A DNA stretch of 64,000 nt from Branchiostoma floridae (taxonomy: Eukaryota; Chordata; Leptocardii; Amphioxiformes; Branchiostomatidae), in the NCBI RefSeq assembly GCF_000003815.2, contig NC_049983.1, forward strand, positions 11,555,491-11,619,490, written 5' to 3'. This document shows, piece by piece, positions 58,001-63,650 of the stretch (position 1 is the first letter of the stretch; every line of letters starts with the position of its first letter). The notes under the pieces were generated by a model, which worked only from the letters and a program-made list of their open reading frames with translations, ran no database searches and had not been told where the DNA came from. A program made the translations under genes and the position numbers.

Positions 58001-61000
58001 TGTTAAACCTTTTTTACAGTTTACAATTTTTGGTCGTGTCCTTTGGCCTCCATCTGCAACTGCCCCACTTTCCTAACGTTAACGCGCACTACTAATGTCA
58101 GGGATCTTAAAGTATCGTGCCAACACAGATCTTCATTTTATAGTAGGGGGTCTTCACAGTAAAGGTTTGGATGACCATAAGAAAAATTTTGTGGTAGAAA
58201 TTATCCATCAACAGGTGGAGCAGTGGCTGATTAATTGCTAGCCCTAGCAACGTTACCAATTTAGTCGTGATTCGAATGGATTTATCACAGCTGCGATTCT
58301 TTAATAGGCTACAGAAATGACACAGCAGGGTAGTAATTGCACCTGAGAAACTATATTAGCGAATGCTAGTATTACTTGAGCAAAAGCTTTTACACATGTA
58401 CAGGGACGCTCTTATATAAAATATCACAACCTTGTATTCCAGTCTGAGTACCTGAAGAAGGTATAGCAATGGTCAACAGAAATGTTAAGATGCGATGCAA
58501 GGCGCTTGTTAGCCACTCACAATCACAGACATCATTTTTTATACGCAATGGTCTCACGTAACAAGCCCCACAGGTTACGTGAATAGGACGGGAACAGCGT
58601 ATTTTCTGCCAGAGTCAGAAACATCATGATTCTACTCCATATTTGGACCGGAGTAGTTTCCATGATCCAATAGATCCATGGCCACTTCACACCGGGATGG
58701 ACCCCAAATGTTTCTAGTGGGTTCTTTATCGTGCTCAAAGAGGTGAAAAATGTAGGAGGACTTCGAAACAAATATTGCTCAGCAGATATAAAGTAAGCTA
58801 GACACCTTGGTTTCCTTGAAGTAGTATTGGTTCTCCTTCGCTTCTCTGGCCAGACCAAAGTCGGACACTTTGGCCACACCGCCGTCCAACACCAGAATGT
58901 TTCGTGCTGCCAGGTCGCGATGAATGCACTGGGGAGAGTAACATTAATAGTCAGTCAAGCAAGCCTTTGTTCAGTATCGTTGTTGACGACATTCTTCGTG
59001 AATATGCTTCTTTTTTGTTTTGTTTGTGCTTGAAAAATGTTGTGATATCGCCAGCTATATCCACTCTTCGACGCATAACACACAAGATTTGGCCTACGTC
59101 ACATTTCCTACCCGGCCCGGCCCGGGCCGGCCGGGGCTGTTTGCGGAAACGAAAAATTAAATCTTTGATATCTGCCTATAGATTTGCAGAAGGCATGCTG
59201 TAGAATAATTTTTTGGTTCGTTTTGTGTTTTTGTTGTCTTTTATATAGCACTTTTCGTTCCCCAAAACTGCCCGGCCGGACCCCTTTGTAGAAATGTGAC
59301 GTTAGACTTTGCAGGCGCGCGGCGCTAACATCCATTGGCATAATACCGGTCGGTTTACTGCAATTTCTCAAGCAATGCTAATTTGGCAAATGATCAACGC
59401 ATCATTTTCTCCAGTTACATGTTGCTGTTACAGCTTACCTTTGCCACTTCTTCTGTGTAAATTATTTTGTCTCTCTGGTCCTGCTAAAAACATAATATCG
59501 TAATTGGAACACACCGCGGAATTGCACGGAGAACGGGCGCGTGGTTGGAAGGGGGTGCACTATACCGGTCGAACGAAACACGGCACAATCAACTGCCGCT
59601 AAGTACCTTTATTCATCCTCTGTTGTTCCTTTCTTTCCTGTTAGTAGTTGCACAAAACAAAAATCTGCATGAGCATACAAAAAGTCATGAGAAAAAAGGC
59701 GTATACTGACAAGAATTTTCATTTAATTTTGGTCCGCCACAGCCGCTATGACGTAAAACTTTACTGCTGGCCGTAGCATTAAAAATGGCGGGAAAATGGC
59801 GGCGTACGTTCAATTTGACCCATTCAGCCGTAGATCCGGGCGATAATGCAACGGTTCCTCACACTTTTACACGAGTTGTAGGTCACCAAAAGAAATTCAA
59901 GATTGCTGTTGAATCATGCTCGTCTTGTGCCGTGAGCACATGTGATTATTATCTACAAATCTGGCGATGAACGTGACAGTGTGTTTGTCCCACGACGAGC
60001 TCGCCTGCCCCGAAAATGACCTGAAAACTTTTGGCCTTGTTGTCTTCGAATGCATTGTTATCGATGCTTTGTAAATTATGTATTGGACACCTAGATGTCT
60101 GAAGTGTGCATACCTCAGAAATAACTATTGTTGCATGTGTAGATCTCTTTAAGTTCCACTATTTTTAATCGACCGGTATAAGGCTTATGACCGGTATTAT
60201 GCCAATGCATGTTATATCTAGCACGTTATATCACACCGAACGACCTGTCACATATCTTTGGACATCTAGCAGTAAGCGTTGTTTACGGCTCACGATCTAG
60301 TGAGAATGCCCCTGCAATACTTGGTGGAATCACCTTCAGAGATGCCAGATGAGTCATCCCCCTCGCCACGTCCAGCGCCATTTTGAGCAGGTCTGCATCC
60401 CGTAGCACGCCCGAGCCCTTAGCGCACAGCTGACGGTCGCCCTCCAGATCGCTGACCAGGTGCCGAGCCTTCAGGAACTCTCGCAGGTTCCCGTGCATGG
60501 CGTACTCCATGATGATGCACAGATTCCCTGTGGACAAATACACAGACGTACGGAAAGTGAAGACCTTTCAATCTGTACTTAGCCAAGAGGGGCAAAAATG
60601 TGTAACAAATGTCTTCACTGATTCATTGTACAAATTGCAGAGACTCTATGGGCAGAAAACACAGACGTATAGAAAGTGGGATGGAAACATTTCAATCTCT
60701 TCTTAGCCAAGAGGGGCAAAATGTGCAATATATAATAAAGTTCTCTATTCATTGTACAAATTGCAGCGATTCCCTTGGCACAAAAACACAGATGTACAGA
60801 AAATGGAAACATTTCAATAATATAAATTGCAGAGATTCCTGGGTACAAAAACACAGACGTACGGAAAGTGGAGACACTCAAATTATACAAATTGCAGATT
60901 TTCCTAAGTACAAAAACACAGACGTATAGAAAGTGGACCCATTTAGATGTCACAAATTGCAGAGATTCCTGGGTACAAAAGCACAGACGTACTGAAAGTG

Positions 61001-63650: not shown

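What the first reader, a model, noticed from the sequence alone, without database searches (positions are those of the whole stretch)
60513..61062. Tandem array of duplicated splice acceptors upstream of a kinase exon
Seen: the intron before kinase exon 60527-60334 carries six tandem copies of a unit that includes the end of the intron, the AG and about the first dozen bases of the exon. Each copy keeps a T-rich tract followed by AG, and the last four decoy AGs are at an exact 65-nt period. The real acceptor is the one nearest the exon body. Inference: the minisatellite grew from the intron-exon junction itself and offers decoy 3' splice sites that may slow, regulate or buffer splicing. Because 65 is not a multiple of 3, use of a decoy would generally change the reading frame.
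Basis: partly seen in the sequence, partly recalled or inferred. Interest (0 to 1): 0.78.

Follow-up and report, generated by a model that had tools for sequence, protein, structure and literature searches.

The report
Tandem splice-site copies in amphioxus kinase
An intron of a receptor-kinase gene, apparently from amphioxus, ends in six extra tandem copies of its own splice junction; this is a real but already described amphioxus oddity, most likely tolerated by the cell, not a regulatory device.

Summary
The array is real. On the minus strand the 1,649-nt intron before kinase exon 60527-60334 carries six decoy acceptors upstream of the true one. The repeat includes the first 12 exon bases, so it grew from the junction. 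Decoys 1-5 are spaced exactly 65 nt. The core unit was found at no other locus.

This is a 'mirage', a splice-junction minisatellite already described in amphioxus Adh3, globin, troponin C and PGBD5 genes. Two loci fitting published globin mirages are in this genome. Five more lie at 144 inferred myosin splice sites, one with 22 copies; junctions were not enriched for repeats.

All six decoys lead to a premature stop. Two score within 0.3 bits of the true site, but acceptor signals are no better conserved than the rest of the unit. I read it as a tolerated by-product of tandem duplication. Regulation is possible but unsupported; no RNA was available.

The parts
62177..62287 (-). Upstream kinase-domain exon ([37 protein letters not shown]), ending in phase 1 at a GT donor
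   Evidence: open frame 2; donor GTAGGATAA
60528..62176 (-). Intron of 1,649 nt that contains the array at its 3' end
61034..61056 (-). Outer edge of the array, with decoy acceptor 1 (AG ends at 61034); self-alignments stop at 61056
   Evidence: matrix score 6.2 bits
60969..61033 (-). Unit 1, 65 nt, ends in decoy acceptor 2
   Evidence: decoy 2 scores 10.1 bits
60904..60968 (-). Unit 2, 65 nt, ends in decoy acceptor 3
   Evidence: 6.6 bits
60839..60903 (-). Unit 3, 65 nt, ends in decoy acceptor 4
   Evidence: 10.1 bits
60774..60838 (-). Unit 4, 65 nt, ends in decoy acceptor 5
   Evidence: 3.7 bits, the weakest
60646..60773 (-). Unit 5, 128 nt, ends in decoy acceptor 6
   Evidence: 6.4 bits
60528..60645 (-). 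Unit 6, 118 nt, ends in the true acceptor (AG ends at 60528)
   Evidence: true site 10.4 bits, best of 103 AGs scored in the intron
60702..60766 (-). Dispersed-repeat fragment in unit 5
   Evidence: 81% match to the query from unit 6; shares with unit 6 two departures from the 7 genomic copies read
60573..60627 (-). Dispersed-repeat fragment in unit 6
   Evidence: 39 other loci listed in each, 84-89% and 83-89% identical
60516..60527 (-). First 12 bases of the kinase exon, copied into the units (11/12 match in decoys 1, 2 and 4)
60334..60527 (-). Kinase exon [18 protein letters not shown]..., protein tyrosine kinase domain, nearest solved relatives FGFR3/FGFR1

Best explanation
It is a mirage-type splice-junction minisatellite. 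Shown by sequence: a tandem unit made of intron end plus 12 exon bases lies six times upstream of the true junction; two units share a fragment of a dispersed repeat with two private base changes. Inferred: one segment (about 50 intron bases plus 12 exon bases) was first duplicated; a short piece, probably a retroposon 3' end, entered one unit before that enlarged unit was duplicated again; the duplications came from replication slippage or unequal exchange and have no purpose. Also inferred: the spliceosome still joins exon 62287-62177 to the acceptor at 60528, mainly by exon definition, because that site gives the short 194-nt exon while decoys would give 312-700 nt exons. Any decoy-spliced message meets an early stop and is removed by nonsense-mediated decay or yields a truncated kinase.
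For: Junction-spanning homology of 12 exon bases. Core unit found only at this locus (that search skips very common words, so it is not proof of uniqueness). All six decoys lead to a stop inside the added sequence. No extra conservation of acceptor signals: 14 of 25 acceptor-side columns invariant, mean identity 0.79, against 21 of 39 and 0.80 in the rest. The same anatomy at globin loci L018 (157-nt offset, donor) and L022 (158-nt period, 4.2 copies, acceptor), fitting the published BflGb9 and BflGb6 periods, and at five of 144 inferred myosin splice sites. Junctions not enriched: 5 of 144 against 4405 of 72721 non-exon positions covered. Published mirages are reported to be spliced regularly (passages). 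Two of 21 decoys in the 22-copy myosin array are identical to its presumed true site from -24 to +22, so local sequence alone could not choose there.
Against: No RNA was available, so correct splicing of this gene is not shown. Decoys 2 and 4 score within 0.3 bits of the true site, so some decoy use is plausible. The exon-like first 12 columns of the units are the best conserved part (8 of 12 invariant, mean identity 0.89), which a selective reading could also claim. The conservation test has only six units, and the acceptor that ends unit 6 is the true one. The branch-point test is uninformative.
Confidence: 0.8

Rival explanations
1. Regulatory decoy array: the upstream acceptors compete for the spliceosome and act as poison sites that lower or tune the amount of functional receptor kinase, the strength varying with copy number.
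For: Every decoy leads to a premature stop, and decoys are five of the six best-scoring AGs in the intron.
Against: No conservation excess of acceptor signals (low power); similar arrays fall across junctions of unrelated genes, both donors and acceptors; published mirages are reported to splice regularly. Premature stops are the default outcome of retaining intron sequence, so they are weak evidence.
Confidence: 0.1
2. Intermediate in intron or exon gain: one of the exon-like copies may be recruited as a new exon, turning the remaining array into a new intron, as proposed for the globin genes (PMC3087553).
For: Units carry acceptors and 12 exon bases. The model was proposed by others from globin mirages (passage).
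Against: Only 12 exon bases are copied and all six decoy readings stop early. I did not test for donors inside the units systematically.
Confidence: 0.05
3. The array is a dispersed transposon or satellite that landed beside the exon, and the exon similarity is coincidence.
For: Part of units 5 and 6 does match a dispersed repeat at 39 other listed loci.
Against: The core query had no match outside this array; an 11/12 exon match at the junction is about 1.5e-5 by chance over three registers; the dispersed piece is absent from units 1-4.
Confidence: 0.02
4. Assembly artefact: the array is a mis-assembly of haplotypes.
Against: Units differ from each other by 11-25% and the four 65-nt spacings are exact. 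No raw reads were available to check copy number.
Confidence: 0.03

Closest known systems
Amphioxus 'mirages' (Adh3, Canestro et al. 2002, NAR, doi 10.1093/nar/gkf386, not held, as cited in PMC3087553; globins BflGb6 and BflGb9, PMC3087553; PGBD5, and TnC as told in PMC3902484)
   Same: Tandem minisatellite-like duplications that span an intron-exon boundary and carry extra splice signals, in amphioxus genes; unit lengths reported 10-72 bp (Adh3), 150-160 bp (BflGb6), 157 bp (BflGb9), 60 and 108 bp (PGBD5)
   Different: Here the gene is a receptor tyrosine kinase, and two units contain a fragment of a dispersed repeat that was amplified with them. I saw no mention of either in the passages read. 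Haplotype length variation and RNA were not testable here.
Minisatellite with multiple splice donors in the human interferon-induced 6-16/IFI6 transcript (NAR 1995;23:1854; title seen in a reference list; content recalled)
   Same: A minisatellite that multiplies a splice site at a junction
   Different: Human, donor side, and its title says it provides splice donor sites; the present case is on the acceptor side with no evidence of use
Tandem alternative acceptors of the NAGNAG type (recalled)
   Same: Several AGs compete upstream of one exon
   Different: Those are a few bases apart and used; here copies are 65-128 nt apart and all six decoys lead to stops

Membership tests
Amphioxus mirage | Tandem repeat unit spans an intron-exon boundary | tested here: met
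   12 exon bases plus intron in the repeat
Amphioxus mirage | Unit length in the published range (10 to about 160 bp) | tested here: met
   65, 118 and 128 nt; published values from passages
Amphioxus mirage | Many, not necessarily all, units carry splice signals | tested here: met
   Six decoys end in AG; 5 of 6 score above the lower quartile (4.9 bits) of 41 inferred acceptors
Amphioxus mirage | Host is a cephalochordate | tested here: inconclusive
   The genome carries no name. It is 513 Mb and holds globin loci with 157- and 158-nt junction repeats like published B. floridae BflGb9 and BflGb6, which fits B. floridae
Amphioxus mirage | Copy number differs between haplotypes or cells | not testable with these tools
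   No second haplotype found: the core query hit one locus only
Amphioxus mirage | Regular splicing in spite of the repeats | not testable with these tools
   No RNA data
Amphioxus mirage | Units at the cluster edge diverge more than inner ones | tested here: inconclusive
   Upstream of decoy 1 the alignments stop at 61056, but inner units are also only 75-89% alike
Dispersed transposon or satellite | Core unit occurs at other loci | tested here: not met
   Core query found only this array (search skips very common words); only the insert in units 5 and 6 is dispersed
Regulated alternative acceptor array | Decoy acceptors are used in RNA | not testable with these tools
   No RNA data
Regulated alternative acceptor array | Acceptor signals conserved above the rest of the unit | tested here: not met
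   0.79 against 0.80 mean identity; six units only, one of them ending in the true acceptor, so power is low

The most novel reading that the evidence does not exclude
Junction minisatellites may be pervasive in this genome (five of 144 inferred splice sites in a myosin sample), so its spliceosome routinely ignores decoy acceptors whose local sequence equals the true one. Because such arrays are reported to be length-unstable even somatically at Adh3 (passage), this kinase array could act as a variable, NMD-coupled brake on receptor dose that differs between individuals or cells.
Probability: 0.06. Interest if true: 0.75.

Novelty: new member of a known kind. Interest (0 to 1): 0.36.

Why it matters
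As a single locus it adds one receptor-kinase gene to a short published list. Its wider value is as a natural experiment: repeated copies of one acceptor, some identical to the presumed true site (the 22-copy myosin array), ask directly what besides local sequence picks a splice site. The shared dispersed-repeat fragment also gives an internal time marker for how such arrays grow.

Tried and rejected
Dispersed-element origin of the whole array: rejected, core unit found only here. Chance exon similarity: rejected. Structured RNA: no Rfam family reached its gathering score in the window. Close paralogue as an array-free outgroup: none useful; the exon query found itself and a 37% relative on C15. 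Branch-point explanation for silent decoys: YTNAY motifs occur at 24 of 41 inferred acceptors at -15 to -45 and in 410 of 1000 intron 60-mers; in the array only decoy 1 and the true site have one there; the stricter YTRAY (16 of 41 against 124 of 1000) is absent from all seven. I drop this as uninformative. Kinase-family survey: the 30 loci returned are the best-scoring matches, nearly all whole domains in one open frame, so I did not use them. Globin L021: a 117-nt duplication begins almost at the donor; too little exon is shared, not counted. L066 acceptor at 165: flagged only by a 66% alignment, not counted. My first survey criterion missed the L056 donor because model ends are not exon ends; it was refined. 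In L067 the script's inferred donor (4888) was wrong; by reading, the donor is at 4853, still inside the flagged repeat.

Counts and drops: the survey used 73 of the 142 myosin rows, those I listed in 14 stretches chosen for dense exons before their sequence was seen, plus all 9 globin rows. 161 splice sites were inferred (144 myosin, 17 globin) from the nearest plausible AG or GT, not from RNA. Raw flags were 8 (6 myosin, 2 globin). Four of the six myosin flags, and three of the five kept, lie in one gene (L066); without L066 it is 2 of 138 sites, and whole-locus repeat coverage without L066 is 3282 of 90865 bases (sum). For the weight matrix, 48 acceptors were inferred from 49 exons and 41 kept by a pyrimidine threshold, which favours T-rich sites.

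Full report
What is there. The gene lies on the minus strand. Its kinase-domain exons include 63683-63396 (GQGAFG), 62287-62177, 60527-60334, 58943-58782 ([11 protein letters not shown]), a KWMAPE piece near 57.9 kb, and WSFGVLLWE near 57.5 kb. The exon 60527-60334 matches the Pfam protein tyrosine kinase model and, among solved chains, FGFR3 and FGFR1 best. An Ephrin_rec_like match lies in the upstream 10-kb stretch L023. I did not name the receptor.

The array. Seven AGs end the seven copies: 61034, 60969, 60904, 60839, 60774, 60646 and the true one at 60528, spaced 65, 65, 65, 65, 128 and 118. Local self-alignments begin at 60516, so 12 exon bases are inside the repeat. These 12 bases match decoys 1, 2 and 4 at 11 of 12; by a binomial estimate that is about 5e-6 at one register and 1.5e-5 over the three tried, and 1 of 126,794 12-mers elsewhere in the window does as well. 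Units are 75-89% alike, so the array is not freshly expanded. The core query found no match outside this array in the 513-Mb genome; the tool warns that very common words are skipped, so this is not proof of uniqueness.

A dispersed-repeat fragment in two units. The extra length of units 5 and 6 matches 39 other listed loci at 84-89% or 83-89%; the lists are lower bounds. Seven copies were read (L002-L008): they share one end with a (GAAT)n run on this strand, which reads AATAAA then (CATT)n on the other, and six of the seven run on alike for over 150 bases away from it. I infer a retroposon 3' end; the family was not tested against a repeat library. Both units share two bases (TCTTGG against ACTGGG) that none of the seven copies has. 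The simplest order is one insertion, some mutation, then duplication of the enlarged unit.

What decoy use would do. Joined to the upstream exon in the correct frame, all six decoys reach a stop before the true exon: five within 10 codons of the junction, decoy 4 after 74 codons. Four of six change the frame by length; 60969 and 60774 do not.

How good the decoys look. A weight matrix from 41 acceptors inferred in myosin and globin genes of the same genome gives the true site 10.4 bits and the decoys 6.2, 10.1, 6.6, 10.1, 3.7 and 6.4. Of 103 AGs scored in the intron the true site is first, five decoys fill ranks 2 to 6, and decoy 5 is sixteenth. The acceptor side of the six units (ending in decoys 2-6 and the true site) is no better conserved than the rest (0.79 against 0.80 mean identity); the exon-like first 12 columns are better conserved (0.89). 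With six units this test has little power.

Comparison with what is known. [quoted passage not shown] I read passages, not the whole text, of PMC3087553 (globins; part of the abstract and of the minisatellite section) and of PMC3902484 (PGBD5). They report Adh3, globin, TnC and PGBD5 cases, haplotype differences (6 against 3 units in BflGb6), somatic instability at Adh3, and regular splicing, with the remark that the extra AG/GT signals could act as cryptic sites. The original Adh paper is not held. In this genome, globin locus L022 has a 158-nt, 4.2-copy acceptor-side array and L018 a 157-nt donor-side duplication that runs into a stretch of N; they fit the published BflGb6 and BflGb9.

How common. 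In 14 stretches holding 73 myosin-head exon matches, 6 of 144 inferred splice sites were flagged and 5 survived reading: the L056 donor; the L066 donor at 374, acceptor at 2108 and donor at 2812; and the L067 donor. They lie in 3 of 14 stretches, three of them in one gene; without L066 the count is 2 of 138. The L066 acceptor array has 22 copies of a 50-nt unit at 95%, and two of its 21 decoys equal the presumed true site from -24 to +22. Among non-exon positions in all stretches surveyed, globin loci included, 4405 of 72721 (6.1%) are covered by a local direct repeat, so junctions are not enriched. That background includes the bodies of the junction arrays themselves.

Reading. It is a new member of a known amphioxus kind. 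I think it is tolerated: the true site is favoured by exon definition (inferred), and leaked products carry early stops. Regulation remains possible but has no support beyond anatomy. Eight literature searches in the held library were answered (several lists were capped). Judged by title and abstract start, only the two papers above bear on junction repeats in amphioxus, and none listed describes this gene; most subscription papers are not held.

Noticed in passing
L066:1032-2133 (G000:C10:21156331-21157432): A myosin gene has a 22-copy, 50-nt, 95% identical array of the acceptor plus about 22 bases of its P-loop exon (GESGAGKT). All 22 copies read AG followed by GTGA, and most hold a further GTAAAA about 15 bases on, so micro-exons or zero-length exons are conceivable. 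Two of 21 decoys equal the presumed true site from -24 to +22.
   Followed up: partly
L066:321-487 and L066:2787-2959: The same myosin gene has junction-spanning duplications at two donors as well (90 nt x 1.9, second donor copy at 464; about 40 nt x 3), so one intron is duplicated at both ends.
   Followed up: partly
L056 minus strand, donors at 900 and 1026; L067 minus strand, donors at 4853 and 4990 (positions counted on the reverse complement): Two further donor-side junction duplications in myosin genes.
   Followed up: partly
L021:1725-1947: Globin gene with a 117-nt duplication that begins almost exactly at the donor; borderline case, not counted.
   Followed up: no
36433-36980: A longer minisatellite (72-, 77- and 192-nt periods) in the same window; relation to any exon not examined.
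   Followed up: no
1591-2085: A 313-nt offset duplication at 68% identity overlapping a 124-aa minus-strand open frame.
   Followed up: no
49999-52509: An 837-aa open frame on the plus strand with no Pfam match at E 0.1.
   Followed up: no
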